Position numbers and translations under genes: made by a program. Shown here piece after piece: positions 1,432 through 22,940 of a stretch of 26,739 bases of DNA. The first letter of the stretch is position 1, and every line of letters starts with the position of its first letter. The DNA is from a virus, in the IMG/VR virus record IMGVR_UViG_3300031351_000015, positions 1-26,739 of that record. One strand, given 5' to 3'. Under the pieces are notes generated by a model. It was not told the DNA's origin, did no database searches, and saw nothing but the letters and a program-made list of their open reading frames with translations.

Positions 1432-3875
1432 TACGCAAACTCCCTCAGCAGACCCGCTAGCTCATTGCGCACTGCGAGCCCGATCTCGCCCGGAAGTTGA
1501 CCCGACGCCCAGATCTGAATTGGTGCGTTGATGTTGACGCTACGTGAGGTCTGCATCATGGCTGGCGTCATTACATACTCGCCTGCGTGCACGAACGCCA
1601 GTCCCGTTCGCTCGACCAGGCCGCCTCGAGCGAAACGCTCCATCGTGGTTCCGCCGCCCCTGTCCATTGCCCCGCCCGTAGCCAGCCCCGCCGTTGCCTC
1701 GCGGATAACGCCGTTGATCTCGTCCCACCATTCGTTGAACAGCCGTAGCGCCGCGTTCTGGCGCAACTTCTGCTGTGTCAGAAACGCCTGCGTCGCAAGG
1801 TCTTCCTGCGCAAGTTGTTCCTGGAACGCCTGGTCCAGTTGTTCGCGCTCTTGCTGCGCCTGGCGTGCTATCTGGTCAAGGCGCTGCTGATGCTGTACAT
1901 CCATCTCTATCAGCTCATTCTGGTGGTCCTCGGCAAGGCGCTGTAAGCGTATGGCGCGGTCCTCATCCTCGATGCGTCGCTGTTCGACCACCGCCTCCTG
2001 CAGGTCCCGAATGCGCTCTTCGTCGGCTTCGCGGAACTGGCGCAATCGTTTTTCGTGCGATTCCTGTTCCTGCTCGATGCGCTCCTGAAGATTCTCCTGC
2101 TCGGTCTCTAGTCGATCACGGTAGGACTCCTCCGCGTCCTGCCCCTGACGAGCGAAGCGCCGCTGCTCCTCGGCCACGGCTGCGGCGTCCAGTCGGGCCG
2201 CTGCGCTGAGCAGATTGTCTCTGTGGTCCCGCTGCGCGCGTTCGCGCTGCCGCGCGTAGTCCTCTTCTAGCTCAGCGATGCGCTCATTGGCGTCGGCGCG
2301 GATATCCGCGATATTCTCGACGTATTCCGCCTGCCATTCGGCTTCGCGCTCGATGGCATCGGCGCGAATATCGGCGATATCCGCTGCAAGCTGCGCCTCC
2401 TGGCGCGCTCGTTGCCGGGCGAAATCCTCGGCCTCGCGAGCGATGGTGCGCTCGTAATTGGCGATTGTCTCACTGCGCTGCTGCTCATAGTTTTGCGTCT
2501 GACTCAGCCGCTGTTCGTTCGCGTCGCGCTCGATGTCTTCGATTGACTGCGCCCACTCCTGAATGAGATCGACTGGCAGAGGCCCGCCTATGCCAGCCTC
2601 TACTGTCCCCGCGCCGCCAATCGGCCCGAATAGGGAGCCGCCTGCCTGTATCCGTTGCGCCGCCTCTATATCCGCTTGCGTGACGGGACTCGGAGCATGA
2701 GCAAATGTTTGCGGGGCGATGCGAGCGAGCTGCTCACGAATTACGTCCGGAACCGACAGCAGCGCTTCGGCGGCATCCATCAGCCCAAAATCGCTTACGT
2801 CCTGCTCGCCAAATATCCCTGTTCTGCCCAAGCCGCGTACAATTGGCACGCTAAGGCCCAATCCAAGCAAGGCGCCAACTGAAGCTGCGCCGGCGGCTCC
2901 GCCTATCGCGCCGGCGGCCCCGCCCATCGTGCCGCTGAATAGCCGTGTTGCGCCTACGGCAATGCTGGCGATTTTCAACCTTTGCAGCGCAGTCACCAAT
3001 TGATTGATGAACAGCAGTAAGGGAGCGCCTACGGCGACAATGCCCAGCAAATTCGCGCCAAGTTCCAATGTCTCCGGGCTCGTTTCGCGCACCATTTCCA
3101 GCCATTCGCGAAACTCCCGCACATTTGATTGCATGCTGTTGAAAAGCGGCGTGAAGCCGACGGCGGCAGTTAGTTTTAGCTCATTTTTCAGGCCCTGAAA
3201 TGAATCCGCCATCTCGCGAGCGCCTTCTTCTGTGGCGCCCATACGAGCCAAGATGAAATCCAACTGGCTGCCATAATCCGAGAATGCGGCCTGCGCTTCC
3301 AAAATCATCGCGGGCGGAATATTGAATAACCGTTGAAGCGACATTGTTTGCCCGGCGAGAAATTCCGCGATAGCGCGTGTTTCAGCGCCGCGCTGCGCAG
3401 CCGGGAAAATACTGCGCAATAATGCCGCCCGTTTTACCCATTCATCCAGTTCGTCTGTATTGCCTTCGAGGATCGGCATAAGCGCTCGCCCCAGTTGCAA
3501 TACGCCTTCAAGTTCGAGGCCGAACTCGTTGGCCGTATTGGTCAGGGTGTGCATCACCTCTTCCGCCTGTTCCTGCGTGCCCAACAGCGTGCGAAAGGCG
3601 ACGGTGTAATTGCGAAGATCGCGAGCGGCGCCCAGGCCGAACGCAGTAGCAAGCCCGCCAACCGCACCGACAGCTAACAATTCAGAGCGGAGTTCTCCTA
3701 TCGTCCGCTGTGCGGTTCTCGCCGCGCCGCCAATGCTCCCAAATCCGCGCTCTACCTGCGCGCTGACGCGCTGCACCGCCACTGTGGCCTGGTTCAATCC
3801 GCTGGTGTCGATGCTGATGCGGCCCTGGGCATGGCCCAAGGATTGCCCGCCGGCGATTCCGCCTAGTAGTGGCAT
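1431..3875 (-). CDS. Tail tape-measure protein
   Basis: 814 residues, the longest gene here. It acts as the ruler for tail assembly and sits in the tail tube before DNA ejection. The N-terminal ~330 residues contain a helical region rich in Ala and Gly, then a hydrophobic Gly/Ala stretch (about 280-350) that could insert into a membrane at ejection. Residues about 430-700 are almost continuous charged coiled coil rich in Glu, Gln and Arg, with repeating IADIRAD segments. The C-terminal ARGGLVERTGLAFVHAGEYV is a motif typical of phage tape measures. ATG at 3875 is preceded by AAGGGG. The expected neighbours (chaperones and gp10-like protein) lie upstream, but a 577-bp interval holding an opposite-strand gene separates them. 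Using the usual ~0.15 nm per residue rule, the tail would be roughly 120 nm long (inference). Confidence 0.95.
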   Translation of the reverse strand: MPLLGGIAGGQSLGHAQGRISIDTSGLNQATVAVQRVSAQVERGFGSIGGAARTAQRTIGELRSELLAVGAVGGLATAFGLGAARDLRNYTVAFRTLLGTQEQAEEVMHTLTNTANEFGLELEGVLQLGRALMPILEGNTDELDEWVKRAALLRSIFPAAQRGAETRAIAEFLAGQTMSLQRLFNIPPAMILEAQAAFSDYGSQLDFILARMGATEEGAREMADSFQGLKNELKLTAAVGFTPLFNSMQSNVREFREWLEMVRETSPETLELGANLLGIVAVGAPLLLFINQLVTALQRLKIASIAVGATRLFSGTMGGAAGAIGGAAGAASVGALLGLGLSVPIVRGLGRTGIFGEQDVSDFGLMDAAEALLSVPDVIREQLARIAPQTFAHAPSPVTQADIEAAQRIQAGGSLFGPIGGAGTVEAGIGGPLPVDLIQEWAQSIEDIERDANEQRLSQTQNYEQQRSETIANYERTIAREAEDFARQRARQEAQLAADIADIRADAIEREAEWQAEYVENIADIRADANERIAELEEDYARQRERAQRDHRDNLLSAAARLDAAAVAEEQRRFARQGQDAEESYRDRLETEQENLQERIEQEQESHEKRLRQFREADEERIRDLQEAVVEQRRIEDEDRAIRLQRLAEDHQNELIEMDVQHQQRLDQIARQAQQEREQLDQAFQEQLAQEDLATQAFLTQQKLRQNAALRLFNEWWDEINGVIREATAGLATGGAMDRGGGTTMERFARGGLVERTGLAFVHAGEYVMTPAMMQTSRSVNINAPIQIWASGQLPGEIGLAVRNELAGLLREFA

Positions 3876-3991
3876 ATCAGCCCCTTATTCCCACAAATGC
3901 CGCACTGCCCATAAGTTATTTGACGCGTGCTGTGAACCGTCGCTCTCTCTACACTCCTAATGAACAATCCACCACCCAATGGAGGGCTCCT

Positions 3992-4456
3992 GTGTACACG
4001 CTCGAACCGGAGAACAAGTCATCAGGCTGTCTGCTCAAGGCATTGGCCGCGATAGGCGCCTTGACGATGGGATTCCTCGTGTTGTTGGTTGTCATCGGTT
4101 TGGCCGGCTCAGGCTCCACATCCTCGGTTAATGCTACGTCAACATTGCATCAGGTTGTCTACAAAATCACGACAGACCGCGAGACGGGGCGCTATCCCGA
4201 TTGTTTCTATTTCGGCACGACGTATCAGGCGCCGAATGGCGCGGCCCAGAAGGAGGTAGCTATCTGTGGCGGCGCGCAGTCCATCGTTGTCGATACGTTC
4301 CGCGTCGAGCCCGGTGATTTCGTCTATCTCTCCGTGCAGAATAGTGAGTATTCGGCGAAAATCTCGTGCGAAATCCTCATAGACAATGAGCTCATCTACC
4401 AGACATTTTCCGAAGGCAAATATGTAATCGCTAGCTGCAGCGGCTTGGTCCCCTAG
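3992..4456 (+). CDS. Membrane-anchored MmpS-like exported protein (moron candidate)
   Basis: The only convincing plus-strand gene, 154 residues. I chose GTG at 3992 because GGAGG lies six bases before it; the frame is open further upstream, but that part does not look coding. Residues about 13-38 (CLLKALAAIGALTMGFLVLLVV follows Lys/Ser) form one transmembrane segment near the N-terminus. The rest would be outside the cytoplasm and is beta-rich. The ending, with CEILIDNELI then SEGKYVIASCSG, fits the C-terminal pattern of MmpS-type accessory proteins, where two cysteines flank the last strands. The gene lies antisense within the late tail operon and its stop shares CTAG with the stop of the convergent gp10-like gene. 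A TTGACG at 3920-3925 could be a -35 box, but no well-spaced -10 is seen. Likely roles are lysogenic conversion or superinfection exclusion (inference). Confidence 0.75.
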   Translation: MYTLEPENKSSGCLLKALAAIGALTMGFLVLLVVIGLAGSGSTSSVNATSTLHQVVYKITTDRETGRYPDCFYFGTTYQAPNGAAQKEVAICGGAQSIVVDTFRVEPGDFVYLSVQNSEYSAKISCEILIDNELIYQTFSEGKYVIASCSGLVP

Positions 4457-5105: not shown

Positions 5106-5523
5106 TCCGCTTCTGTTTGTCACGAAAGCGACGCAGCACCTCCGCCGGCTGCGTAGCGAGCTGATAGATCGCTGCCTTGTCGGCGAAGTCGATATCCTCC
5201 AGGCTAATTTCGTCATCGCCTGTAGGATCGTCAACTACTCGCGGCTCGACCATGGCCGCCGGTACGATAATGTTGATCAGCTCGGCGTAGCCTTTGGCCT
5301 TCTCGGCCTCGTTGGCGATTTCCTCGCCGTCCGTCTCGATCCAGAGCGACTTGGCGGCCAGCGGCGTGAGCAGGTCCGGCAGCTTGCCCGATATGATCAG
5401 CACATCCAGCGCCACAGGGCGCAACCGCGCCACATGGCCGGAGGGCAATGTCACCACATAGCCCTCCTCACGCGCTTTGCGCCATTCTGCAGCACTGGTC
5501 GGCTTCGGTTCGCGCCCCGCCAT
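5056..5523 (-). CDS. Tail assembly chaperone (first, G-like)
   Basis: 155 residues. It sits between the major tail protein and the tape measure, the standard place for tail chaperones, and its start shares a base with the previous stop. The N-terminus EEGYVVTLPSGHVARLRPV followed by ALDVLIISGKLPDLLTPLA is a pattern seen in chaperone-like proteins at this position in many siphoviruses. The C-terminus is acidic (DDPTGDDEISLEDIDFADK) followed by a basic tail. It is not expected in the finished virion. The last 50 bases overlap the second chaperone frame, so the pair may be one expression unit giving a short and a long product. Confidence 0.75.
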   Translation of the reverse strand: MAGREPKPTSAAEWRKAREEGYVVTLPSGHVARLRPVALDVLIISGKLPDLLTPLAAKSLWIETDGEEIANEAEKAKGYAELINIIVPAAMVEPRVVDDPTGDDEISLEDIDFADKAAIYQLATQPAEVLRRFRDKQKRNVAAVSDGQGDGTATE

Positions 5524-6074
5524 TAGAGCCCGCCCGTCTCGGTGCGCAGCGGAATCTCCACACCGGTCAAGGCCGTGAACTTGCGCAGCCTGAGCATGCC
5601 ATTGACCGTGCCCTCGTTCACGCCCTGGAATTCGGCGCTTGGCAGCATGTAGGTGTCAACCTGCGCCTGGAGCCGGAGATTGCCGGCGAGCTTGGCTTTA
5701 GGTACGAAGACATGCAGATCGCTGCTCCCTCCGCTGCCCACGATACGGCCGGCAAGCGCCACATAAGGCACTTCATCATCCTCGGCGACGAACAGATCCT
5801 CGTAGTCCGCGCCGCTCACCAGCGTGCCGCCCATGAGCATGTCCACCACCTCCAGGTCGACGGCGGCCTGCTCAATATTGACCGTCACGCTGACCAATTT
5901 GGTGTAGCGATCGAGCACTACATCATCGCCGCGCAGCTCGTCGGTCTCCACGACCCACTCGACGTTCATGTTGCGGGCGCCGTGAATATCGTAGGCTGTC
6001 CCGTAATCATTTTCGTCATTCCACGCCGCGATCTTCAGATCGCGCAGTCCTCTGTGGAACGTTTTAGTTCCCAT
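5523..6074 (-). CDS. Major tail protein (tail tube subunit)
   Basis: 183 residues; ATG at 6074 preceded by GGAG nine bases upstream, with the stop of the tail-terminator gene inside that leader. The protein is beta-rich with no membrane segment. It begins FHRGLRDLKIAAWNDENDYG and has repeated short beta strands and an acidic centre, as in phage tail-tube proteins. The assignment rests mainly on gene order: tail terminator, this gene, two chaperone-type genes and the tape measure. It would form the stacked rings of the tail tube through which DNA leaves. No added Ig-like domain is seen. Confidence 0.85.
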   Translation of the reverse strand: MGTKTFHRGLRDLKIAAWNDENDYGTAYDIHGARNMNVEWVVETDELRGDDVVLDRYTKLVSVTVNIEQAAVDLEVVDMLMGGTLVSGADYEDLFVAEDDEVPYVALAGRIVGSGGSSDLHVFVPKAKLAGNLRLQAQVDTYMLPSAEFQGVNEGTVNGMLRLRKFTALTGVEIPLRTETGGL

Positions 6075-6537: not shown

Positions 6538-7251
6538 TCAGTTCGGATGCTCCACAATCAGGTCCGGCTGCAGCCAGACTGGCGTCCCATTGGCGGCCAG
6601 CATCTGCGTCATGCCCTGCACCATGTTCTCGGCCGGAAAATGCACGCGCCGCGCCTCGCCAGCCCGCATCACCACGCAACTGCCGGCGCTATCCAGCGCC
6701 ACCGGCTTGCCGTTTACGCTCGGATGGTAAGGCGGCGCGTTTGTGAAGTGCTCTCCCTGAGCCGCAAATCCCCATCGGTCGTAGAACCAGCGCACATTAG
6801 GGTCCCGCCCATAGAGAGTGCATCCCGGCGCATGGAAGACCATGGCCGCCACAGCCGGGAAACGGTCCAGCCGGTCAACCATTTCCGCCATGACGGCTGG
6901 CTCCCAGATGAGGTCGCCCTCGACGAACACGACAGCGCCGGCGTCGTCCGGAATATGCGTCCACAGCGTGTTATAGACTGCGGCCAGTTGCGCAAAGCGC
7001 TGTGTATTGATGATGGACCCGAATGACGGCCCCCCATGGCTGGCATCCAGAATCTTGCCCGCTAGCCCTAATTTCTGCATCCCGGACAGCAGCATGGCGG
7101 GTGTGTGGTCGTCGCTGTCGCCCTCTCCGATAAGTAAATATGGCCTGTGGCCGCGTTCGTCGAGCAGAAAATAGAGACCGGCCACCTGTTGAAAATAGCG
7201 CGGCACGTGCTGTGCACAGTTGCGAAATGCAGAAACGAATGCGATCTTCAT
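6538..7251 (-). CDS. GT-A-like glycosyltransferase (Anp1/GT62-like pattern)
   Basis: 237 residues; ATG overlaps the previous stop as ATGA. The protein begins KIAFVSAFRNCAQHVPRYF, an ordinary Rossmann-like GT-A start with a helix of the type that follows the first strand. A central strand ends in VVFVEGDLIWEP (about 107-118), where EGD takes the place of the usual DxD metal and nucleotide-sugar site. Later, PVALDSAGSCVVMRAGEAR (about 183-201) resembles the acceptor-side loop of Anp1-type mannosyltransferases. The best guess is transfer of a sugar from a nucleotide donor. Donor and acceptor cannot be read from the sequence. It is the last sugar gene before the tail module. Confidence 0.65.
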   Translation of the reverse strand: MKIAFVSAFRNCAQHVPRYFQQVAGLYFLLDERGHRPYLLIGEGDSDDHTPAMLLSGMQKLGLAGKILDASHGGPSFGSIINTQRFAQLAAVYNTLWTHIPDDAGAVVFVEGDLIWEPAVMAEMVDRLDRFPAVAAMVFHAPGCTLYGRDPNVRWFYDRWGFAAQGEHFTNAPPYHPSVNGKPVALDSAGSCVVMRAGEARRVHFPAENMVQGMTQMLAANGTPVWLQPDLIVEHPN

Positions 7252-7991
7252 GCGTTCGCCTCCTTGCGCTGGACGAGTTTCAGATTGGCCTCCAGCACCC
7301 AGGGCGCATCATCGATGGCATAGGGCCTGGGCATCCCCGTCGCATATGCCATCGTGTGGTTGAGATTGCTCTCCTCGCTCTCCATCATGGCCTGCTTGCC
7401 GCCATACTCTATATAGGCATGGTTGATGTGGATGGCCGTCAGCGCCTGCGTAGCGTCAATCACGGTCATGTCCCAGCGATGCATGGCCGCCCATACCAGC
7501 CAGTTAGCATAAATGGTCTTGCCCACGCCGAAGGGCGGGATATCATCCACCATCAGTGTGTCGCGATAGAGGAAATAATCTATATTACAGGTCGGATGCA
7601 GCACTGCCGACTCCGGCGCGGCGCCCGGTTCAATGTCCCAACGCTGGCCGATTACGAACGGGCGCTCTACATCTTCCAGTACAGCGAGTACATTTCGCAG
7701 CTCTGCGCCTAGCACAATATCGGCGCTGATTTCACACAGCCATGGCTGCGTCGCATAGCGCTCGCCCAGGGCAAACAGGCTGTCTACACGCGGCGTGCCC
7801 CATTTATTGCGCTTCACATCCATGCAGTGGATGATGCCGAGATCATGGACTGCCTGGCGCGAGCCGGGCGGATCGCCTATCACGATGATCTGGGGATTTG
7901 GGACTGCACCTTGCCATGATGCAATCGCCGCGCGTTGCAATCCATCGAACTCTCCAGTGAACGCCCGTGGCGATGTGAAGAAGGTGATCAT
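7248..7991 (-). CDS. GT-A-like protein, paralogue B of a tandem pair
   Basis: 247 residues from ATG 7991, which shares one base with the stop of paralogue A (TGATG). It shares several exact blocks with its upstream neighbour: RPFVIGQRWD (about 110-119), IPPF, NWLVWAAMHRWDMTVIDAT (about 163-181) and an IHINH-Y-E motif (about 187-194). A short strand with SADIVLGA (about 89-96) is in the place of a DxD motif. The NWL... VIDAT ...HINH layout matches the C-terminal half of poorly characterised GT-A-fold proteins that sit in bacterial polysaccharide clusters. A nucleotide-sugar transferase is likely but unproven. One DNA block is almost identical to the other copy (see finding). Confidence 0.65.
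   Translation of the reverse strand: MITFFTSPRAFTGEFDGLQRAAIASWQGAVPNPQIIVIGDPPGSRQAVHDLGIIHCMDVKRNKWGTPRVDSLFALGERYATQPWLCEISADIVLGAELRNVLAVLEDVERPFVIGQRWDIEPGAAPESAVLHPTCNIDYFLYRDTLMVDDIPPFGVGKTIYANWLVWAAMHRWDMTVIDATQALTAIHINHAYIEYGGKQAMMESEESNLNHTMAYATGMPRPYAIDDAPWVLEANLKLVQRKEANA
7453..7505. repeat. 53-bp near-identical block, copy in paralogue B
   Basis: Matches 8187-8239 at 52 of 53 bases, the first 41 without a mismatch. It encodes most of NWLVWAAMHRWDMTVIDAT in both genes, while the surrounding DNA of the two paralogues is clearly diverged. Confidence 0.9.
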
Positions 7992-8704
7992 CAAGCCTCC
8001 CGCATTTTCAATACGTAGTTGGCGCCTAGTACCCACGGCGCATCATTGACGCCAAGAGGCCGCATCATCCCGCTCATGCGCGCCAGCTGCACATTCTCGG
8101 CGCGTTCTGCGCTCCTGAACATACCCTCTTTATCGCCATGCTCAGCATAGGGATGATTTATGTGCACGATTTTTATGCTGTCCGTGGCGTCAATCACGGT
8201 CATGTCCCAGCGATGCATGGCCGCCCACACCAGCCAGTTGTCATGCAGCGTGCGCCCGATGGCAAACGGCGGAATGCCGGCTGCGTCGAGCTGGCCGCCA
8301 CGGAAGATGCAATAACTAACCGCGCTTGGCGGATGCAGTTTGCAATGGCCGTCTGCGTTCATGTCCCACCGTTGCCCTATGACAAAAGGCCGCTCGATTT
8401 GCGCCAAAGCCATAAGTGCGGCGGGCAATGTGGCATCAAATAGCAGATCGCTCTCGCCCACACACACCCATTCGCTCTTCTGCGCACAAGCAATCTCCCA
8501 TACGCCGGACAACGTAGTAATGCCGCGTGCATTGGTGGCTGGCGTCCGCAATTCATCCGCGCCCGTGTCCGCAGGTAAATCCTGTCCAAGCAGCACAATG
8601 CGCGCGCTTGGCACAGCCTCACGCCAGGACGTGAGCGCGCGGCGCTGAATCGTGTCAAATATGCCCGTGAAGGGCCGGCAAGGGACTACGAAAGTGATCT
8701 CCAT
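7991..8704 (-). CDS. GT-A-like protein, paralogue A of a tandem pair
   Basis: 237 residues from ATG 8704, four bases after the stop of the mutase-like gene. It begins EITFVVPCRPFTGIFDTIQ, comparable to ITFFTSPRAFTGEFDGLQ in paralogue B. A strand ending WVCVGESDLLFD (about 79-90) gives ESD in the DxD position. RPFVIGQRWDM, NWLVWAAMHRWDMTVIDAT and IVHINHPYAEHGDKEG are shared with its partner. The two proteins differ clearly elsewhere, so the duplication itself is old, or two related genes were acquired together. Likely role: transfer of a sugar in the same pathway as the neighbouring mutase, with the two copies perhaps acting on successive positions (inference). Confidence 0.65.
   Translation of the reverse strand: MEITFVVPCRPFTGIFDTIQRRALTSWREAVPSARIVLLGQDLPADTGADELRTPATNARGITTLSGVWEIACAQKSEWVCVGESDLLFDATLPAALMALAQIERPFVIGQRWDMNADGHCKLHPPSAVSYCIFRGGQLDAAGIPPFAIGRTLHDNWLVWAAMHRWDMTVIDATDSIKIVHINHPYAEHGDKEGMFRSAERAENVQLARMSGMMRPLGVNDAPWVLGANYVLKMREA
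8187..8239. repeat. 53-bp near-identical block, copy in paralogue A
   Basis: Partner of 7453-7505 in the tandem glycosyltransferase-like genes. The single difference is a C/T at 8228 (7494). Confidence 0.9.
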
Positions 8705-8708
8705 CGTG

Positions 8709-9581
8709 CTACATGGCTCCCTGCCATTGCTCACGCCGCTCGCGGTATTCGTCGAAATACGGGTCCTCTACGTCGCCCTGCCAAAAGCGCTCGTTGAGCT
8801 CCAACCCGCGCGCTTCCTTCTGTAGATTGCTCCATACATTCGAGGCGCGCTCATGCAGTACTGTGGCGTACCCGCTCACCACTGCCCAGCCCTTGTCGTC
8901 AATCACGCGCTTGCTCTCGATGCCGCACCAGATATCGGCAAAGCGATCCATCCCTACGCGCGGCCCCATCGGCGCGAAATACATCCACGGCAGCAATTTG
9001 CGCTTGAATGCAAGATTCATGCCGCACATAGGATAGAAGACGCCTTTCGGTATCGGGCCACGATAAAAGTTAACCTCGCGATTGCCCCTGACCAGCTGCG
9101 TCGGCGCGTCCCAATCCCTGACGCCATTCCAGACGCCGTGCGATAGCACGACCTCGGCTTCGTCGCGCACGCCATAAGGAAAGCCACGCATAAACTCAGA
9201 TGCCGTGCTCATCCAGCTAACCGGCACATACATATCGAGCGCGTCCAGATGGTCTTGGATGGTATCGCCTATGGGTGCTACGTCGTCGTCTAGCGTGATA
9301 ATGACCTCGATCTGCGGCAATGCACGCGCCACGTAATAGAAGCCCGCATTGCGCACCCCGTCATTGTGATTGTAGAGCAGGCGATATTTGTCACCCATCA
9401 CGGTCTCAACACAGATCGATTCCGTCTCGCCATCTACTTGCAGGAGCGGTGTATCTCCATCTTGCACCGTAATCAGGCGGATATCATGCTTGATGAAAAG
9501 TGCGCGCCACGCGGCCAGGAACTGGTCATAGATCTGATGCCGGCTGCCCATCGTCGGCACGACTACGGCGATATTCGTCAT
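8709..9581 (-). CDS. UDP-arabinopyranose mutase-like protein (reversibly glycosylated polypeptide, GT75 type)
   Basis: 290 residues from ATG 9581 (ATGA overlap with the methyltransferase-like gene). The whole length follows plant reversibly glycosylated polypeptides, which interconvert UDP-arabinopyranose and UDP-arabinofuranose. It has IAVVVPTMGSRHQIYDQFLA at the start, LITVQDGDTP (about 36-45), IITLDDDVAP (94-103, with the DDD metal/nucleotide site at 98-100), FMRGFPYGVR (130-139), DAPTQL (158-163), IPKGVFYPMCGMNLAF (about 177-192) and HERASNVWSNLQKE (about 243-256). Arg132 and Arg139 have the same seven-residue spacing as the two arginines reported, as I recall, to be essential in rice UAM. 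At 290 residues it is somewhat shorter than the roughly 350 of the plant enzymes. Lying in a phage late operon among glycosyltransferases, it probably supplies or rearranges an activated pentose. Confidence 0.85.
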   Translation of the reverse strand: MTNIAVVVPTMGSRHQIYDQFLAAWRALFIKHDIRLITVQDGDTPLLQVDGETESICVETVMGDKYRLLYNHNDGVRNAGFYYVARALPQIEVIITLDDDVAPIGDTIQDHLDALDMYVPVSWMSTASEFMRGFPYGVRDEAEVVLSHGVWNGVRDWDAPTQLVRGNREVNFYRGPIPKGVFYPMCGMNLAFKRKLLPWMYFAPMGPRVGMDRFADIWCGIESKRVIDDKGWAVVSGYATVLHERASNVWSNLQKEARGLELNERFWQGDVEDPYFDEYRERREQWQGAM

Positions 9582-10198
9582 CGCTGGCGCGGCCCTTTGT
9601 CCGGATGATTGACGCACCAATCGCGTACTGCCTCGCGATATCGTTCGGCAACGGCAATCAGTATCCCACTGTGCAGTACAATATATCGCTCCGGCAGTGC
9701 TGCGCAGATCTGGTCGAGACTCGGCCATTGCGCCGGATTGCCGCGCAGCCGCGGCGGACTTACGAAATAATGTGCATCGTCAATCATCACGGCATGATTG
9801 CCGCGCAGATGCTCCAGTTCCGCCAACAGCGGGCAGGCGTCAACTGCCCCTTGCAGCGGGTCAACTTCCGGCGTCGGCGTGCCGCAGCAAATCCAATGCG
9901 CATCCAGCCATACGACAGCGGGCCGTGCCAGCATCTTGAGCATTGGCCCTAGCATCTCCCCGCTATCCCCGCAGAATCGTTGCACGTTTGACGGCCACTC
10001 CAGTGCATTGCCCGCCTCAAACCGTTTTGCCACTCCTTCCACGGTCATCACAGTTTCAAAGTGCGGGGCTACGGTGCGCACCGTGCCGCCTTGATATGTT
10101 CCGGTCTCGACGAACGCTGTCAGATTGCATGTATCGCGTAGCATCAGGGCGATTTCCAGCGGGAATGGCGGCACGGGATTCATAAAGACGTTAGGCAC
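9578..10198 (-). CDS. SAM-methyltransferase-like Rossmann protein of the sugar cassette
   Basis: 206 residues from GTG 10198, chosen because AAGGAG lies seven bases upstream; an ATG at 10183 is the alternative. The N-terminal part has LTAFVETGTYQGGTVRTVA, a glycine-rich motif I as in class I SAM-dependent methyltransferases, followed by an acidic strand end (VMTVEG) and GDSGEML. A central AVVWLDAHW, then CPLLAELEHL and VMIDDAHYF, are the marks of a methyltransferase-like group often found with glycan-synthesis genes. Whether it really methylates a sugar or a protein is not shown. The start overlaps the end of the GT2 gene, and the stop is coupled to the mutase-like gene. Confidence 0.65.
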   Translation of the reverse strand: MPNVFMNPVPPFPLEIALMLRDTCNLTAFVETGTYQGGTVRTVAPHFETVMTVEGVAKRFEAGNALEWPSNVQRFCGDSGEMLGPMLKMLARPAVVWLDAHWICCGTPTPEVDPLQGAVDACPLLAELEHLRGNHAVMIDDAHYFVSPPRLRGNPAQWPSLDQICAALPERYIVLHSGILIAVAERYREAVRDWCVNHPDKGPRQR

Positions 10199-11045
10199 GG
10201 GTCCTCTCCTTTTCAGGATCGATTTCCGCCCATCCCTCTGCATGGTTCCTAAGCCACGGCCCCATATCCGCCGGATGCGGCCCCTTGTACGGCTCTATCA
10301 TGCCGCCAATCAAGCGTTCCGCCATGCGATAGTCATATGGCTCCACCTGCGGCACACGCCCGTCCTGCAACCCGGCCCCGTCCGCGTACCAGGCCGTATG
10401 CTTGGTCTGCGAGATGGCCAGCGCCTGCGGAGTGCGACACCACCCGTAATGCAGCATGGGCGTATCCACCCACACCGCGCCGTCATCGTGCACGTTGTGG
10501 GCATCTACCTCGCGCCCATTGCGCCGGATTACCATCTGGCACGCTGCCCACTTGGGATGCTCATCACTGCACCAATTGCGCATCCGGTAGCCTGCCGAGG
10601 CCCGGCCCAACCGCGAGTTATGATCGTAGAATCCCTTGAGCACCCGGTAGCCTGCGGTCCCGTACAGATGGATGTACGGGAAGATGATCACCTGTATCTT
10701 TGGGTCCCGCATGATTTTCCGCAACTTGGGCGCATACTCCTCATGCAGCGCCTCATCCGCATCGTGGTACATATGCCAGTCTGCCGTCGTCATCTCCCGG
10801 CTCCAGTTCCACCATCGTTCCTGCCAGCCGCGGTCAAAACGGAATGTCTCCTCGCGAATCTTCAGCCGGTCCCTACCATAACGGTCCTGTAGCGCGTAGA
10901 TAGCGTCCCGCGTGCCGTCTACCGATTGTCCAACCACTATGCACGCCTCATCACACACGCGCAGCCCGGAAGCAATAGCAGCCTCATAGGGATAATCCAT
11001 AATGATGAGGTTGGCCGCGCGATAGAATGCAGCAGAGCCGCTCAT
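10191..11045 (-). CDS. GT2-type glycosyltransferase
   Basis: 284 residues; ATGA overlap with the head-closure gene. A GT-A fold is indicated by an N-terminal region with an SVDGTRDAIYAL loop (about 41-52), a basic middle (RFDRGWQERWWNW), and WHMYHDADEALHEE (about 90-103), in which DAD at 95-97 is the DxD metal and nucleotide-sugar site. The last third has PMLHYGWCRTPQA, a motif seen in short GT2 enzymes of bacterial polysaccharide loci. It is soluble with no membrane segment. It starts a continuous run of six sugar-related genes that separates the head-completion genes from the tail terminator. Donor and acceptor are unknown. Confidence 0.75.
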   Translation of the reverse strand: MSGSAAFYRAANLIIMDYPYEAAIASGLRVCDEACIVVGQSVDGTRDAIYALQDRYGRDRLKIREETFRFDRGWQERWWNWSREMTTADWHMYHDADEALHEEYAPKLRKIMRDPKIQVIIFPYIHLYGTAGYRVLKGFYDHNSRLGRASAGYRMRNWCSDEHPKWAACQMVIRRNGREVDAHNVHDDGAVWVDTPMLHYGWCRTPQALAISQTKHTAWYADGAGLQDGRVPQVEPYDYRMAERLIGGMIEPYKGPHPADMGPWLRNHAEGWAEIDPEKERTRA

Positions 11046-11425
11046 CCCGTCGCCTCCGCCACGCCTTGCACCTCGCCCAGCGTCGTGATGATATCCACTA
11101 CCCGGTATAGATCATTCCCGCTGATGAAGCGATAGCCCTCGGCGATATCGGTATCCGTCACCGTAGCATGGTTGCGCACGCCAAAGATGATGAGCTTGCG
11201 TCGCGGCGCGGCCCCTGCTTCGCTCTCCGCCAGGCTGGCCGAGTTGTCGCTCTCCAGACGCACCGTCTGCGCCGCGAGCGTGGTTCCATTCGGCTTCTTA
11301 AACGTCACGCTGGTCGGCTTGTCGCCGATGCGCCGCCAGGCACGCGCCGCCCGCTGCGCTTCCGTCTCCGTGGGCAGGGCAGCCAGGTCCCCGCCCGCCG
11401 CCAGCCATGCGTTGATGCTAGGCAT
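11042..11425 (-). CDS. Head-closure / head-tail joining protein
   Basis: 127 residues from ATG 11425, with GGGAA nine bases upstream; it overlaps the connector gene by 8 bases. A helical N-terminus (INAWLAAGGDLAALPTETEAQRAARAW) leads to a beta-rich domain with TSVTFKKPNGTTLAAQTVRLES, KLIIFGVRNH and a final strand pair EGYRFISGNDLYRVVDI. This resembles the small SH3-like joining proteins that close the head after packaging. The role is inferred from fold impression and from position right after the connector-like gene. The next gene is a glycosyltransferase, not the expected tail terminator. Confidence 0.7.
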   Translation of the reverse strand: MPSINAWLAAGGDLAALPTETEAQRAARAWRRIGDKPTSVTFKKPNGTTLAAQTVRLESDNSASLAESEAGAAPRRKLIIFGVRNHATVTDTDIAEGYRFISGNDLYRVVDIITTLGEVQGVAEATG

Positions 11426-11789
11426 CTGGATATTCCCGGATCGCTTTCGGCTTGCGGCGCAAGCTGCCGAATCTCGCCGCACCAACCGCGCTGCCGGTCG
11501 TCACTGCATCATCCAGCTCGCCTTGCCACATCTCCAGCAAGGCCCTCAGATGCGTGAACACATCGCTGGCGTTCTCGCTGCTATTATTCTGCCGATAGCT
11601 GGTCAGTTTGGCGCTGGAGGCCAGCAGCCGGCGGATCGCAATCACCCGCGTCGCTGCCTTGATACTATTGGCGTCCGTGTAGCGTTCGCCTGCCTCCACA
11701 TAAATCGCATCCGCTTCGGTATCATCCAGCGTCGTGGAGTCTGCGCCGATATCGTCTCGCAATCTGCTACGCTGCAACGCGGTCGCCAT
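11418..11789 (-). CDS. Head-tail connector (gp6-like adaptor)
   Basis: 123 residues from ATG 11789, chosen for the GGAAGGGG site just upstream; the gene overlaps the GT4 gene end by 23 bases. It is mostly helical: ALQRSRLRDDIGADSTTLDDTEADAIYVEAGERY, then AIRRLLASSAKLTSYRQNNSSENASDVFTHLRALLEMW. This pattern (acidic first helix, LLAS.AKLTSY, a second long helix) is that of gp6/gp15-type adaptors that bind the portal ring. In most siphoviruses it follows the capsid gene directly; here a GT4 glycosyltransferase gene is wedged between them. Confidence 0.8.
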   Translation of the reverse strand: MATALQRSRLRDDIGADSTTLDDTEADAIYVEAGERYTDANSIKAATRVIAIRRLLASSAKLTSYRQNNSSENASDVFTHLRALLEMWQGELDDAVTTGSAVGAARFGSLRRKPKAIREYPDA

Positions 11790-12828
11790 ATAGCACCCCT
11801 TCCCATATCCCCAATATTGCGCGCGCAAAAGCGCGCCAGTCATACATCGCTCCCACATGCGGCGCATTGCGCATTGCGCGCATCTGATATACATCGCGCC
11901 GGTCCGCCACATCGCGCAGCACGCCTGCTAGATATTTCGTGTCCACATGCGCCCACTCGCCTAAATCCTGTCCCTTCAGATTGCTCGTCTTCCATCTCGC
12001 CGGCACCAGCGTATAGTCCAGCGGAACGCCCCATATGTCGATATCGTCTGCAGTCCCGCTCCAGTTCGTGGCCAAGGCAACGCCGCCCGTGGCTGCGAAT
12101 TCCCGCGGAATCAGACCGAAGCCCTCGCCGGTAGATGGATGGATCAGCACATCGGCCGATAGATAGAGCTGATAGAGAGCCGCTTCGCTCATGTCCTGCG
12201 CAATGATGGTCACGTTGTCGTTGAGCAGGTCGAGCGGATATTGCTGGTGACGCATCTTCAGGATCAGGCGCACGTCCCGGCGATCGCCGAAGGCGCGCAC
12301 AAACGCATTCAGCGCCAGCATCCCACCCTTGCGCGACCCGCGGTCAAGGAAGGCGAGGAAGGTTAGCGGGGCCTGATTGAGCGTTTTGCGCGGCTGATAT
12401 ATCGGCGACAGGCCGAGAGGCGCCACATAGCTGGGTGTGCGCACTCCGCAATCGCGGAACAGCTCGGCGCCGAAGTGCGATGTTGTTACCAACGCATCGC
12501 AACGATTCAGCACAGGAGCCCAGTCGGCGGGGATCTTGCTCGACTCGAACATGGTCAGCGCGACCCGCGGCCCATATGCGGTCACGGCTCCATGACGGTG
12601 ATAGCCGGTCGGATAACCCATTAGCACCGCACCCAGGCTTGGCCGCCGCGGCCGCGAGACCATCTTCTTGATATCGGCGGGTTGATTGGCGAATCTGGTG
12701 TCGCCTAGCGCATAAGCATTGACATAGCAGCCCATGCCTGTCAGTTGCCGCGCAAGCTGACAGGCGATAAGTCCGTAGCTGTCGTATAGATCCCAATACC
12801 CCGGCGCGCAGATGTTAATCGCGTACAC
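11767..12828 (-). CDS. GT4-type glycosyltransferase inserted between capsid and connector genes
   Basis: 353 residues from GTG 12828, which shares one base with the capsid stop (TAGTG). The open frame continues upstream inside the capsid gene but is not coding there. The protein begins VYAINICAPGYWDLYDSYG, a first beta-alpha unit of a GT-B fold. The middle has a typical LVTTSHFGAELFRDCGV acceptor-domain end and VAPLGLSPIY at the domain linker. The C-terminal donor domain contains VLIHPSTGEGFGLIPREFAA, where Glu235 and Glu243 form the EX7E motif of GT4 enzymes that retain anomeric configuration. No membrane segment is seen. Its tight coupling to the capsid gene points to late expression and virion-related glycosylation (inference). 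Confidence 0.85.
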   Translation of the reverse strand: MYAINICAPGYWDLYDSYGLIACQLARQLTGMGCYVNAYALGDTRFANQPADIKKMVSRPRRPSLGAVLMGYPTGYHRHGAVTAYGPRVALTMFESSKIPADWAPVLNRCDALVTTSHFGAELFRDCGVRTPSYVAPLGLSPIYQPRKTLNQAPLTFLAFLDRGSRKGGMLALNAFVRAFGDRRDVRLILKMRHQQYPLDLLNDNVTIIAQDMSEAALYQLYLSADVLIHPSTGEGFGLIPREFAATGGVALATNWSGTADDIDIWGVPLDYTLVPARWKTSNLKGQDLGEWAHVDTKYLAGVLRDVADRRDVYQMRAMRNAPHVGAMYDWRAFARAILGIWEGVLYGDRVAA

Positions 12829-13838
12829 TATGGCAGCGTAATCTCCTCCACTGCGCCCACGGGATTGGCGTACACACCGAAGTACGTGTCCCACACGGTC
12901 TGAGTGAGCAGCCGGCTGATATCCTGCTGCTCGCCTTCCTGCAGGAGATCCTGTTTCATGTATGACTGGAAGTCGTAGCCCTGATATTGCAGGCTGATGA
13001 GATATGCCGTGCCCGAGCTGACGCCGGAATACGTTGTGGACTTGCTGCCGCGCGTGCCGGTCCAGCCGTCATACGCGATGACGCTGCGCACCATGTCGAT
13101 GGCTCGGCTCTGCAAGCTCACGCCCTCCTGCGGGACCCTGGTCAGCGCCTTCTCGATCGTGAAGAGATTGGCCGCCGAGCACAGAATCGCATACGGCCCG
13201 CGCCGCGGATTGTCGGTATCGGTCATGCTATTGGCGATGGCGTCCTCAATGGTCAGCATGTAATCCTCTACCGTGGTCACACCGCTCGAGTTAGCCGCCG
13301 TCTGGTTGGCCGCGGCATAGGCGTAGGCCAAAATCGGATTGAGGTGCAGATGGTTGAGCAGCGCATTGTAGGCGATGCCTACCTGACGCTCGACCAGCGG
13401 CACCCGCCACAGCTCATTGAACTCCACCAGATCCTTGCTGTACTCCAGACCTACGCCGTAGTGCACGATTGGCACGGAGAAGTCGGAACTGCCCACGCTG
13501 GCGAACTTGATTTCGCCGCCCTCGAAAATCTGTTCGAGCACCACGCCCGCCGGCCCCAGCCGATTGACAGCCACGTTACGCGGCAGATTACGGTCCCGAA
13601 TCTCCTGGTAGATGGGCGTGTAGAGGATAGGCTCCTCATCGCGCCCTGCGAACACCTCATAGCGCTGGCGCTCTTGCCACGCGTCTCCGAAATCGCCCAT
13701 GCCGACAAACTCATGGACGATTTTGCCGCTCACATCACGCACCTCGCGCACATGATCAGACAGACGGAAACCCGGCTTGAAACTGCGGGTCGGCTTTTGC
13801 GTGGCCAGCATTTCCCGGCTGTGAATTTTGATAGTCAT
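12828..13838 (-). CDS. Major capsid protein (HK97-fold type)
   Basis: 336 residues; ATG 13838 is preceded by GGGGGAGG. It follows the protease/scaffold and decoration genes, the standard position for the capsid subunit. The sequence has the expected build. An N-terminal arm runs about 1-70, then GRDEEPILYTPIYQEI, a spine-helix region with YSKDLVEFNELWRVPLVERQ, a central domain, and TAYLISLQYQGYDFQSYMKQDL. It ends with a strand DTYFGVYANPVGAVEEITLP. A lysine that might crosslink cannot be identified. It is not obviously preceded by a long cleaved delta domain, which fits a scaffold encoded by the separate nested gene upstream. Confidence 0.9.
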   Translation of the reverse strand: MTIKIHSREMLATQKPTRSFKPGFRLSDHVREVRDVSGKIVHEFVGMGDFGDAWQERQRYEVFAGRDEEPILYTPIYQEIRDRNLPRNVAVNRLGPAGVVLEQIFEGGEIKFASVGSSDFSVPIVHYGVGLEYSKDLVEFNELWRVPLVERQVGIAYNALLNHLHLNPILAYAYAAANQTAANSSGVTTVEDYMLTIEDAIANSMTDTDNPRRGPYAILCSAANLFTIEKALTRVPQEGVSLQSRAIDMVRSVIAYDGWTGTRGSKSTTYSGVSSGTAYLISLQYQGYDFQSYMKQDLLQEGEQQDISRLLTQTVWDTYFGVYANPVGAVEEITLP

Positions 13839-13849
13839 CTCGCCTCCCC

Positions 13850-14242
13850 CTAGCTCAGCAGCGCGTTGTGCGCAAGCATAATGCCAGTAACGATATTGTT
13901 CGCGTCTTTGTCGGCCGTGGCCTTGAAGAACGCGATATTGCCCGCGCCGGCCGACGTGCCGTACGCCTCGTCATCAGGGTAGTGACCAGTGGCGGTCGCT
14001 ACCGTGATGTAGACGATATCCCCCTTCGACACGCTCAGCCCGGACGGAACCTCGAACTGATATTCTCGATTGTCGGCAATAAGGGCGATGCTGTCGCCGC
14101 TATCGCCGTCATCCCCGGCCAGACCCAGCCATGCATCTGCATAGATAACGGAGTTCTTGGCTACCGTGTAGAGCAGATCCACATTGACGGCCTTGCCGTC
14201 GCTTTCGAAATAGGCCTCACTTCCGGCCACTGTCGTCGCCAT
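13850..14242 (-). CDS. Capsid decoration protein (DUF2190-like)
   Basis: 130 residues; the start ATG shares a base with the protease stop (TAATG). The protein is a small beta-rich domain with DNREYQFEVPSGLSVSKGDIVYITVATATG, the strand pattern of DUF2190-like proteins encoded between protease and capsid genes. These sit on the outside of the head and stabilise it. The N-terminus VAGSEAYFESDGKAVNVDLLY carries another strand pair. It lies 11 bases before the capsid start. An exposed decoration protein would be a natural acceptor for the sugar genes nearby, but nothing in the sequence shows that. Confidence 0.8.
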   Translation of the reverse strand: MATTVAGSEAYFESDGKAVNVDLLYTVAKNSVIYADAWLGLAGDDGDSGDSIALIADNREYQFEVPSGLSVSKGDIVYITVATATGHYPDDEAYGTSAGAGNIAFFKATADKDANNIVTGIMLAHNALLS

Positions 14243-15952: not shown

Positions 15953-16705
15953 TCATCCATGCACCGCCGGTATGTACGTCGTGTGCTGCTCCGGTTTCGC
16001 CACAAACAGATCGCCCAGCTTCGTCAACTTGCCGTTCTCCGTGAGCAACGACGGCGCTTCCCACAGTTCGTCATAGGCGCTGAACCAAGCCGCTGCTTGG
16101 ATATTGCCCGCTCGCAGCGCCTGTCGCACTGCCTGCAACACATCCGCATTCGTCTGCGCGCTCCAGCTTGCGCACTCCGTCACAATCACCGGCAGGTCGC
16201 GGAGGCCGGCCAGATATTCCAGCGCACCATGCAGCCGTTTCGTCCATGCCTGGCCCCTGTAGTCGTAAAGATGGATGTGCCAGCAGTCGGGCAGCGGTCC
16301 CCCGGCGGCCAGATAGTCATTGAGCCAGGCGCGGCCGTGGTCGAATACGTCCCACAAAATGCCGGGCAGCGCGAATCTCACGCCGAGAGGTTCTGTCATG
16401 TGCCGGAACCTGCGCACGCCCTCGGCGAAGCTCCCCGGCGGCGTATCGGACTGGTCCGCGCGCTCCGGCTCGTTGCCCAACAGCCACAATCGCCCCGGCT
16501 GCCGCTGGACGGACGGCAGCGCCGTGTTCACCGCGTCAACGTTGCAGCGCCAGAGCATCGGTATGTAACCGTCCATGTTGAGCCGGCCGTACTTCCAGTT
16601 ATGCCACCAGGCCGGTCGCAACCTGTCCAGCGCGTCGTAGTACCAGGCTGGCTCGTTCTCAGCCCGCTGCCACGGCAGGCCCACGCCGAAGCCGGTTGGT
16701 ATCAC
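15953..16705 (-). CDS. Clan-A glycosidase, GH128/Asl1-like, inside the head gene block
   Basis: 250 residues; ATGA overlap with the 56-residue gene. It has a single TIM-barrel-like domain with the pattern of Asl1/GH128 glycosidases: PAWWHNWKYG (about 31-40), YIPMLWRC (47-54), LWLLGNEPE (73-81, with Glu79 as candidate acid/base), LPDCWHIHLYDYR (about 138-150) and LPVIVTECASWS (171-182, with Glu177 as candidate nucleophile). GH128 enzymes cut beta-1,3-glucans. No signal peptide is visible, so it would act from the virion or after lysis. It lies between the MuF-type and protease genes, where virion head proteins are normally encoded, and shares its fold with the N-terminal half of the endolysin here. 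Confidence 0.75.
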   Translation of the reverse strand: MIPTGFGVGLPWQRAENEPAWYYDALDRLRPAWWHNWKYGRLNMDGYIPMLWRCNVDAVNTALPSVQRQPGRLWLLGNEPERADQSDTPPGSFAEGVRRFRHMTEPLGVRFALPGILWDVFDHGRAWLNDYLAAGGPLPDCWHIHLYDYRGQAWTKRLHGALEYLAGLRDLPVIVTECASWSAQTNADVLQAVRQALRAGNIQAAAWFSAYDELWEAPSLLTENGKLTKLGDLFVAKPEQHTTYIPAVHG

Positions 16706-21103: not shown

Positions 21104-21452
21104 GGTTCAGCGCCTCAAGCATCCGCATCAGTTTGTCCGTCTGCACGCCGTGCAGCACCGCCGCATCCGATGCTGACTGTATCTTCAGCCACTGCGGATC
21201 TCGAAATATCTGCAGCTGCGCTATCAGCGTCTTGAGCGATTCCTCCATGTACTTGACCAGCAGGTCCCCTATCTCTACCTGTTTTTCTGTTGCAACCTTG
21301 GCAACTTTTTCGCCTAAATCGCGGCTTTTCCAGCTCTTGACGGTCCCTGACGGTATGCCATAGTCTTTCGCCACCGCATTGACAGATTGGCCTTCGAGCA
21401 GAGCCGCCAATACCGCCGCTTTCGTCTCGGGGTCGTAGCTGCGAGCGCTCAT
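21084..21452 (-). CDS. Terminase small subunit-like protein with helix-turn-helix
   Basis: 122 residues from ATG 21452, which overlaps the endolysin stop as ATGA; GGGAGG stands four bases upstream. Residues about 6-42 (YDPETKAAVLAALLEGQSV then NAVAKDYGIPSGTVKSWKS) form a helix-turn-helix of the kind that recognises packaging sites. The remainder is long helices (KQVEIGDLLVKYMEESLKTL), suitable for ring formation. Its place directly before the large subunit supports the call. An unrelated transposase-like regulator would show a similar helix-turn-helix, but no transposase genes are near. Confidence 0.8.
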   Translation of the reverse strand: MSARSYDPETKAAVLAALLEGQSVNAVAKDYGIPSGTVKSWKSRDLGEKVAKVATEKQVEIGDLLVKYMEESLKTLIAQLQIFRDPQWLKIQSASDAAVLHGVQTDKLMRMLEALNRAESTD

Positions 21453-22855
21453 ACCGCCTCCCGCAACAGCGCGGCCACCCTCCGCATCCACGCCGCGCCG
21501 AATGTCTGCCAGCCGCTGATGCGCGTGTACCAGTCGATGCGCCAGGCCATGTAGCGAAGGAAGATCGGGCCAGCTTCCGCCAATGCCTGTTGCGCCCGCC
21601 CTACTCCGCCATTGACAGCCAGGTCAAAGTGCGCCAAGGATAGCGGCCACGGCATGGCGTTGGCTCCGCTGGCCAGCCAGTACCATTCATAATAGATTTG
21701 GCGCACCTCACCATCAGAGATGTTGCGGAGATCGTCCTTGTTGGGGATTGGATGGCCGTGTGCCTGGCGCCAAGCGCGGTAGGTGCCGAGCGTGACGCCC
21801 TTCATCGTTGCGCCGCCCGGATCGGCGGGATTGTCGGACCAGCCGTCCTCCTGCCCGAGCACGACGGCCAGTGCACGCTCGAAATTGGCGTCGCCGTCGC
21901 CTGGTGCATCGTCCAGCGCATCCTCTCCGCTCTCGATTTGCGGACCATCTATGACAACAACCGGCGCATATACAGCGTGATCGGCCGCTGCCTCAGATAC
22001 TGCGTACTTCAGCCACAGAGGATTCACCGGACCTGCATCACACTCCTCAACCCAGGGATGCGCTCCGTCTGTCGTGAATAGCGTTGCGCCGACGATGTAA
22101 TCATCTAGCTGCAACTCCGCTTCCGCCTGGCGCCATTGCTCGAAATATGTATCGGCCTCAATGTCGCCCTTCCACCCATCGCGCGCATAGAGCCCCCATG
22201 AGCCGTCCGGATTCTGATATGCCTTCAAACCGCCCAGCTCCGTCAGGATGGTTGGAACCTTGATAGCCATCTTCCGATAGCGCAGGAACCACCAGCCTGC
22301 GTAGAAATGCACGCCCTTGTTGAAGCCCCAATACTCGTGCAAGCCGAGGTATCTGCCAGAATGCGCCGTGATCCAGCGAAGCAATGGTAGCCAAGGCGTC
22401 CAATCCGGCGGTGTATCCTCTCCATGGTTTGCAGGCCAGCCAACCGCCAATTGCCCATGGATCGTCGGCAATCCCAAGCGCAAACCTTCTTCGCCAAATG
22501 CCAGTTCGTACGCGAGCTGCGTCTCCATGCCGCCGGGTTCCCAAACCGGGAACTCATTAACGCCCTCGACGAGAATGCGCTCGCGCGGGATGCCCGGCAG
22601 GTGCTCATGCCATTCCTGAGCATGTCGCTTGCCGGCGCCTATTGGCTCGCGCCAAACATCGTCGTGCTGCTGGCTCAGTGGATGGTCGCGCAATATAACC
22701 AGGCCCGGGGCGCTTTCAATGACGCGTTTGACATGCTCCAAATTCGGAGCGCTGGAATAGACAACCTTGGAAACTGGCGCAGGTACCTGCGCCAGCATTT
22801 GCATATCTTCAGGGCGATGATGTTCTGGTAATAGATGTATTCCGATTTTTGTCAT
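21449..22855 (-). CDS. Two-domain endolysin: clan-A glycosidase plus GH108 muramidase
   Basis: 468 residues. I start at ATG 22855; the frame continues upstream to a TTG but that part is the terminator hairpin. Residues about 1-285 look like a TIM-barrel glycosidase: RILVEGVNEFPVW (Glu101 candidate acid/base), YLGLHEYWGF, and VPTILTELGGLKAY (Glu206 candidate nucleophile). After a Pro/Asp-rich linker (about 300-325), residues 327-465 match GH108: FERALAVVLGQEDGWSDNP with Glu336, DPGGATMKGVT, and a C-terminal peptidoglycan-binding part with LSLAHFDLAVNGGVGRAQQAL. It should cut the host wall from inside at lysis. No signal peptide and no neighbouring holin were recognised. It opens the late block, before the terminase genes. 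Confidence 0.85.
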   Translation of the reverse strand: MTKIGIHLLPEHHRPEDMQMLAQVPAPVSKVVYSSAPNLEHVKRVIESAPGLVILRDHPLSQQHDDVWREPIGAGKRHAQEWHEHLPGIPRERILVEGVNEFPVWEPGGMETQLAYELAFGEEGLRLGLPTIHGQLAVGWPANHGEDTPPDWTPWLPLLRWITAHSGRYLGLHEYWGFNKGVHFYAGWWFLRYRKMAIKVPTILTELGGLKAYQNPDGSWGLYARDGWKGDIEADTYFEQWRQAEAELQLDDYIVGATLFTTDGAHPWVEECDAGPVNPLWLKYAVSEAAADHAVYAPVVVIDGPQIESGEDALDDAPGDGDANFERALAVVLGQEDGWSDNPADPGGATMKGVTLGTYRAWRQAHGHPIPNKDDLRNISDGEVRQIYYEWYWLASGANAMPWPLSLAHFDLAVNGGVGRAQQALAEAGPIFLRYMAWRIDWYTRISGWQTFGAAWMRRVAALLREAV

Positions 22856-22876
22856 GAGCGCCGCTACCAAAACAAA

Positions 22877-22909
22877 GAGGGCCACCGCGTTATTGATGCG
22901 ATGGCCCTC
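22877..22909 (-). terminator. Intrinsic terminator between early and late blocks
   Basis: On the minus strand GAGGGCCA pairs with TGGCCCTC; the stem continues through a G-U pair and three more G-C pairs, leaving a loop of about nine bases. The stem is followed directly by TTTGTTTT. It lies 30 bases after the stop of the last early gene and 22 bases before the endolysin start, so late transcription must either read through (antitermination) or start at a promoter I cannot see. Confidence 0.85.
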
Positions 22910-22940
22910 GGCTCGAGGCAACCTGTGAAATTGTCTAGCG

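What the first reader, a model, noticed from the sequence alone, without database searches (positions are those of the whole stretch)
6538..12828. Seven-gene sugar cassette interleaved with head-completion genes in the late operon
A GT4, a GT2, a methyltransferase-like protein, a UDP-arabinopyranose mutase-like protein, two GT-A-like paralogues and another GT-A-like protein share a strand and start/stop overlaps with capsid, connector and tail genes. Phage sugar genes for DNA modification usually lie with early genes; here they are bound to virion production. I infer a late-acting glycosylation system, most likely for virion proteins (capsid, decoration or tail), possibly with an arabinofuranose-type sugar. 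Host-surface modification is the main alternative. I know of no described phage system with this set.
Basis: partly seen in the sequence, partly recalled or inferred. Interest (0 to 1): 0.88.

Follow-up and report, generated by a model that had tools for sequence, protein, structure and literature searches.

The report
Capsid-linked sugar gene cassette in phage
An uncultured tailed phage carries seven sugar-handling genes threaded among its capsid and tail genes; one of them sits beside the capsid gene in dozens of related phages, so the phages probably coat their own particles with sugars, as some mycobacteriophages are known to do with unrelated enzymes.

Summary
Seven same-strand sugar-type ORFs (GT4, GT2, O-methyltransferase-like, RGP/UDP-arabinopyranose mutase, two 41%-identical GT-A paralogues, a third GT-A) lie between capsid and tail-tube genes, with 1-4 nt overlaps at five joints. 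They form two layers. The GT4 is lineage-wide: of 66 non-redundant viral relatives, 43 sit at the capsid/connector junction and 18 in the neck region before the tail tube; its divergence tracks the capsid's (r = 0.58, 0/5000 permutations). The other six fill an exchangeable slot that in relatives holds an acetyltransferase, a sulfotransferase-like gene, a methyltransferase or GTA3. GT2, MT and GTA recur together in another head-gene slot, once with GT2 and MT in one ORF. RGP homologues lie in GT arrays right after unrelated capsid genes. Isolated phages with a homologous capsid lack the GT4. Best explanation: late glycosylation of virion proteins, with arabinofuranose and O-methyl decoration inferred. 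The kind is known (mycobacteriophages Che8, Corndog, Myrna; Corndog also keeps an O-methyltransferase and GTs among head genes), but the enzymes show no convincing homology. Acceptor, glycan and host are unknown.

The parts
12828..13838 (-). major capsid protein (not part of the cassette; immediately 5' of GT4)
   Evidence: homologues in 10 viral loci and Bacillus/Clostridioides phages; phrog_3116 1.9e-57, a PHROG without annotated function; called MCP by position and synteny
11767..12828 (-). GT4 (GT-B) glycosyltransferase, conserved capsid-adjacent gene; 1-nt overlap with the MCP stop
   Evidence: PF00534 9e-8; phrog_2170 9e-24; EX7E-type motif E257/E265 invariant in 7; synteny in 66 non-redundant loci
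11418..11789 (-). head-tail connector-like gene between GT4 and head-closure gene
   Evidence: synteny with relatives; phrog_5274 0.0033; inferred
11042..11425 (-). head-closure/stopper-like gene
   Evidence: synteny and 32-71% identity in MCP relatives; inferred name
10191..11045 (-). GT2 (GT-A) glycosyltransferase
   Evidence: PF00535 2.7e-4, own-record rescan 1.8e-6; invariant D95/D97/E98 in 5 relatives
9578..10183 (-). class I SAM methyltransferase, O-methyltransferase-like (longer start 10243 possible)
   Evidence: profile hits PIMT 9e-6, COMT 1e-4; VIA Z 6-6.7 to methyltransferases on a poor model; one ORF with GT2 in L020
8709..9581 (-). RGP family protein, probable UDP-arabinopyranose mutase
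   Evidence: PF03214 5.5e-34; PDB 8cid 1.6e-28; RGFPxxxR Arg pair and LDDD motif kept
7991..8704 (-). GTA1, GT-A fold glycosyltransferase-like paralogue
   Evidence: 41% identical to GTA2; homologues L018-L021
7248..7991 (-). GTA2, GT-A fold glycosyltransferase-like paralogue
   Evidence: AlphaFold2 pLDDT 92.5, GT-A matches Z about 15
6538..7251 (-). GTA3, GT-A glycosyltransferase (CAP59 / procollagen galactosyltransferase-like profile)
   Evidence: CAP59 4.7e-4; profile vs procollagen galactosyltransferase 1.3e-5; same slot in L024, L027, L100
6078..6530 (-). neck/tail-completion-like gene closing the slot
   Evidence: synteny in relatives; inferred
5523..6074 (-). major tail (tube) protein, possible acceptor
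   Evidence: phrog_4971 8e-16
13850..14242 (-). small capsid decoration/cement-like protein, possible acceptor
   Evidence: PF09956 Phage_cement_2 0.0037, below cut-off; 85% identical in L010 against 63% for the MCP

Best explanation
The genes encode a cytosolic, late-expressed glycosylation pathway that decorates virion proteins (major capsid, decoration and/or tail-tube protein) of this siphophage lineage. Shown by computation: enzyme classes, co-operonic layout, lineage-wide conservation of the capsid-adjacent GT4, exchangeable second slot. Inferred: the GT4 adds or primes a sugar on a capsid-associated protein; GT2, GTA1, GTA2 and GTA3 extend or branch it; RGP turns UDP-arabinopyranose (from the host or from genes outside the fragment) into UDP-arabinofuranose as one donor; the methyltransferase O-methylates a sugar. 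Relatives swap the elaborating enzymes, so related particles would carry different glycans on a shared plan.
For: Gene coupling. GT4 neighbourhood: 43 of 66 non-redundant relatives at the capsid/connector junction, 18 more in the neck region before the tail tube, 2 unclear, 3 with no structural gene; the capsid genes belong to two groups (homologues of the window's, and phrog_3990). GT4 and MCP distances correlate, r = 0.58, 0/5000 permutations, 23 syntenic loci. Isolated phages with homologous MCP (BalMu-1, BSP7, phiCD27) have no GT-sized gene between MCP and the next small head genes. The 110 unassigned ORFs in relatives' structural modules include methyltransferases (17 hits to one family), GT2 (5), GT1 (4), epimerases (4), hexapeptide acyltransferases (2), sulfotransferases (2). 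GT2 and GTA recur, with MT in three cases, between head-morphogenesis and scaffold/protease genes in L018-L021, with GT2-MT in one ORF in L020. RGP homologues L002 and L004 lie in GT arrays right after MCPs of other families (phrog_1328, phrog_371). No predicted membrane segment in any of the seven, as expected for a cytosolic acceptor. Precedent: Corndog-type phages.
Against: No acceptor, glycan or expression data; the host is unknown. The GT4-MCP correlation is weaker than MCP-portal (r 0.85), so the GT4 is also exchanged. The 80 loci kept are the best of 164, so the neighbourhood count leans towards the close clade. The GT4 superfamily also occurs in Streptomyces phages where it is not next to capsid genes. 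RGP could itself be a transferase: PDB chains named 'Transglycosylse' (7xpr and others) match its profile. No UDP-arabinose-making enzyme is in the window. MCP C-termini of the lineage show no Ser/Thr-rich extension.
Confidence: 0.66

Rival explanations
1. Host-surface modification: the enzymes alter cell-envelope glycans late in infection or in lysogens, blocking superinfection or progeny re-adsorption to debris.
For: GTs, O-acetyltransferases and methyltransferases are common envelope-modifying cargo (general knowledge); integrases occur in 7 of 18 related records, so some relatives look temperate.
Against: No GtrA-type flippase in 18 records while the control rang in 7 of 14 genomes; no transmembrane segment in the seven proteins; genes are knit into the head operon rather than set apart like lysogenic-conversion genes; GT4 divergence follows the MCP.
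Confidence: 0.17
2. DNA hypermodification: the GTs glycosylate a hydroxymethylated base, as in T4 or arabinosylated RB69.
For: Phage DNA arabinosylation exists (PMC6024577) and an arabinose-type mutase is present here.
Against: No thymidylate-synthase/hydroxymethylase homologue in the window record or 17 related records (control rang in 9 of 14); location among virion genes; seven enzymes plus exchangeable acyl/sulfo/methyl cargo are more than base glycosylation needs. Records are fragments, and the Tet/JBP search had no working control.
Confidence: 0.07
3. Mobile cargo (morons) that merely lands in permissive gaps of the late operon, with no link between the products and the virion.
For: The second slot is highly variable and the GT2/MT/GTA group occurs in another slot.
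Against: The GT4 is retained at one place through deep divergence (mean identity 43%) and cargo is biased to glycan chemistry.
Confidence: 0.07

Closest known systems
Virion glycosylation in mycobacteriophages Corndog (cluster O), Che8 (F1) and Myrna (C) (Freeman et al. 2023, known here only through citing papers PMC11600133, PMC12363180, PMC12619734; Corndog genes in PMC4351075)
   Same: Phage-encoded GTs plus, in cluster O, an O-methyltransferase, placed among head genes (portal-OMT-GT-GT-GT-protease-MCP in Mori), reported to modify capsid and tail-tube proteins.
   Different: No convincing homology of the enzymes (at best GTA3 against Che8 gp109, E 0.0056 among 9 sequences); other phage lineage; a capsid-adjacent GT4, an RGP mutase and an exchangeable slot are not described in the papers read.
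RGP / UDP-arabinopyranose mutase (PF03214, PDB 8cid)
   Same: Family match, LDDD motif and the Arg pair of the RGYPFSLR region.
   Different: Phage-borne, in a capsid operon; activity untested.
RB69-type DNA arabinosylation (PMC6024577)
   Same: Possible arabinose donor chemistry.
   Different: RB69 candidate genes lie by DNA polymerase/UvsX in a phage with a hydroxymethylase; here late operon and no hydroxymethylase found.
gtrABC-type lysogenic conversion
   Same: Phage GT genes.
   Different: No flippase or membrane GT found; head-operon location.

Membership tests
Mycobacteriophage-type virion glycosylation system | phage-encoded glycosyltransferases | tested here: met
   GT4, GT2, GTA members by Pfam or fold
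Mycobacteriophage-type virion glycosylation system | GT and O-methyltransferase genes among head genes (cluster O form) | tested here: met
   window layout, Mori layout, L018-L021 in an equivalent slot
Mycobacteriophage-type virion glycosylation system | homology to Che8 gp108-110 / cluster O OMT and GT enzymes | tested here: not met
   hmmsearch and hhalign give no convincing match; only GTA3~gp109 is marginal
Mycobacteriophage-type virion glycosylation system | glycans covalently on capsid and tail-tube proteins | not testable with these tools
   needs virion mass spectrometry
RGP/UAM family (PF03214) | profile match over the family cut-off | tested here: met
   118 bits against a cut-off of 23.8; 8cid 1.6e-28
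RGP/UAM family (PF03214) | DDD motif and conserved Arg pair of the active site | tested here: met
   LDDD and RGFPxxxR aligned to 8cid RGYPFSLR; their catalytic role is from general knowledge
RGP/UAM family (PF03214) | pyranose-furanose mutase activity | not testable with these tools
   needs an enzyme assay
Phage DNA base glycosylation (T4/RB69) | base hydroxymethylase (TS superfamily) | tested here: inconclusive
   absent from the window record and 17 relatives, but the records are fragments
gtrABC serotype conversion | GtrA flippase | tested here: inconclusive
   no PF04138 in 18 records, but the records may be fragments
gtrABC serotype conversion | membrane-anchored glycosyltransferases | tested here: not met
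   no 19-residue window with mean hydropathy over 1.4 in any of the seven proteins

The most novel reading that the evidence does not exclude
A large lineage of uncultured siphophages carries a modular virion-glycan system: a core GT4 fixed beside the capsid gene and an exchangeable slot (GTs, O-methyl-, O-acetyl-, sulfotransferases, an arabinofuranose mutase) that diversifies the particle's sugar coat between close relatives, a serotype-like variation of phage capsids, including phage-made arabinofuranose.
Probability: 0.4. Interest if true: 0.78.

Novelty: new variant of a known kind. Interest (0 to 1): 0.6.

Why it matters
Experimentally reported virion glycosylation is confined, in the papers read, to a few mycobacteriophages. 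Here a GT gene is locked to the capsid gene across dozens of uncultured phages, with interchangeable glycan-tailoring enzymes and a plant-type arabinose mutase. It makes the question of whether phage particles commonly carry variable sugar coats, and why outside animal immunity, directly testable by co-expressing a handful of genes.

Tried and rejected
GT2 single-protein viral scan found nothing although its relatives later came with the GTA alignment. GT2 and GTA2 tblastn in GenBank phages: no match. MT structure model too poor (pLDDT 59); Foldseek gave only weak PLP-enzyme matches, which I discount; profile and VIA results favour a methyltransferase. Tet/JBP dioxygenase search had no working control, so it shows nothing. 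Corndog itself was not found under two accessions; Mori of the same cluster was used. Freeman et al. 2023 is not in the library. Host assignment: MCP relatives in one Gammaproteobacteria MAG and one Chloroflexota MAG contig; both contigs are short and look all-phage, so no host call is made. A C-terminal Ser/Thr tail on the MCP as glycosylation site: not seen.

Full report
WHAT IS THERE. The window is a 26.7 kb virus record of unknown host, a siphophage late region read on the - strand: terminase, portal, head morphogenesis, scaffold/protease-like, decoration, capsid, two small head genes, tail tube, chaperones, tape measure. Seven sugar-type genes lie between capsid and tail tube. establish the enzyme classes: GT4 (PF00534), GT2 (weak PF00535), class I methyltransferase (by profile, not Pfam), RGP (PF03214, strong), two paralogous GT-A proteins of no named family (confident model), and GTA3 (weak CAP59; profile hit to procollagen galactosyltransferase 1.3e-5). 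Junctions are tight and no promoter- or terminator-like match lies on the coding strand of the region; that scan covers sigma-70-type sites only.

TWO LAYERS. Scanning viral contigs with a GT4 alignment gave at least 164 relatives, the best 80 kept. Collapsed at 95% identity together with loci from other scans they form 66 groups; 63 have at least one recognised structural gene on the locus. With a second capsid family added (12 loci; phrog_3990 'major head protein' in the three tested), 43 are at the capsid/connector junction, 18 in the neck region before the tail tube, 2 unclear, 3 without a structural gene. In the 23 syntenic loci GT4 and MCP distances correlate (r 0.58, 0/5000; r 0.35 when two non-syntenic loci are included), less tightly than MCP with portal (0.85). 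So the GT4 is a long-standing, partly exchanged member of the head module. Isolated phages with homologous capsid genes (BalMu-1, BSP7, phiCD27) go straight from capsid to small head genes.

The other six genes fill the slot between the head-closure-like and neck-like genes. In relatives this slot holds a sulfotransferase-like gene (L010/L011), a hexapeptide acetyltransferase (L013), acetyltransferase plus GTA3 (L024, L100), GTA3 (L027) or a methyltransferase (L016). Some of these names are my reading of the sequence, backed by Pfam tallies over 110 ORFs, which count families and do not name each gene. GT2 and GTA occur together in L018-L021 but between head-morphogenesis and scaffold genes; MT is found beside them in L018 and L019 and is joined to GT2 in one ORF in L020 (a sequencing indel could mimic this). 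RGP homologues of 60-63% identity lie in arrays with 8 and 15 other sugar-type neighbours right behind capsid genes of two other families, in phages that share no other detected gene with the window.

MECHANISM. Shown: classes, layout, conservation, lack of membrane segments. Inferred: cytosolic transfer of sugars to a capsid-associated protein before or during assembly; RGP as supplier of UDP-arabinofuranose; O-methylation of a sugar. The GT2-MT single ORF and the recurrence of the group favour GT2 and MT acting on one glycan. Which protein is the acceptor is open: the decoration-like protein is unusually conserved (85% against 63% for MCP in L010), the MCP is the constant neighbour, and the tail tube lies close to the GT4 in the second group.

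COMPARISON. Mycobacteriophages are the precedent. PMC4351075 describes, in Corndog, an O-methyltransferase, two GTs and a putative N-acetylglucosaminyltransferase between portal and protease and suggested capsid modification; later papers citing Freeman et al. 2023 state that capsid and tail-tube proteins are glycosylated. Mori confirms the layout. Che8 keeps its GTs at the far end of the genome. Window enzymes show no convincing homology to either set. So: works like that system, by position and chemistry; not a member by descent on the evidence here. DNA modification and envelope modification are disfavoured but not excluded, since the records are fragments.

VERDICT. Real and more than chance; the kind is known; the lineage, enzyme set, capsid-locked GT4 and exchangeable slot were not found described in the papers searched, a library limited to open-licence papers.

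Noticed in passing
window 15953-16705 (-): A glycoside-hydrolase catalytic-core gene (PF11790, 1.1e-17) sits inside the head operon between head-morphogenesis and scaffold genes; unusual place for a hydrolase and possibly linked to the sugar theme.
   Followed up: partly
window 21449-22921 (-): Lysin-like protein with a Glyco_hydro_108 domain (1.6e-22) and a long N-terminal region that by eye resembles the same hydrolase core, directly upstream of the small terminase gene.
   Followed up: no
window 3869-4456 (+): A 195-aa ORF on the opposite strand upstream of the tape measure gene with a hydrophobic stretch; no Pfam match.
   Followed up: no
window 13850-14242 (-): The small decoration/cement-like protein is more conserved among close relatives than the capsid, portal or GT4.
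   Followed up: partly
L004:2183-15612 and L002:5143-13666: Long GT arrays directly behind capsid genes in two phages of other capsid families, with DegT aminotransferase and nucleotidyltransferase genes, suggesting phage-made NDP-sugars.
   Followed up: partly
L071:10990-11904: A phosphodiesterase/phosphatase-like ORF (by eye) follows the GT4 before the connector.
   Followed up: no
L101 (Streptomyces phage Wofford) 4243-8945: A GT4 homologue lies with two GTs and a heptose-type nucleotidyltransferase a few kb before the portal gene in Stanwilliamsviridae; possible further virion glycosylation candidates.
   Followed up: no
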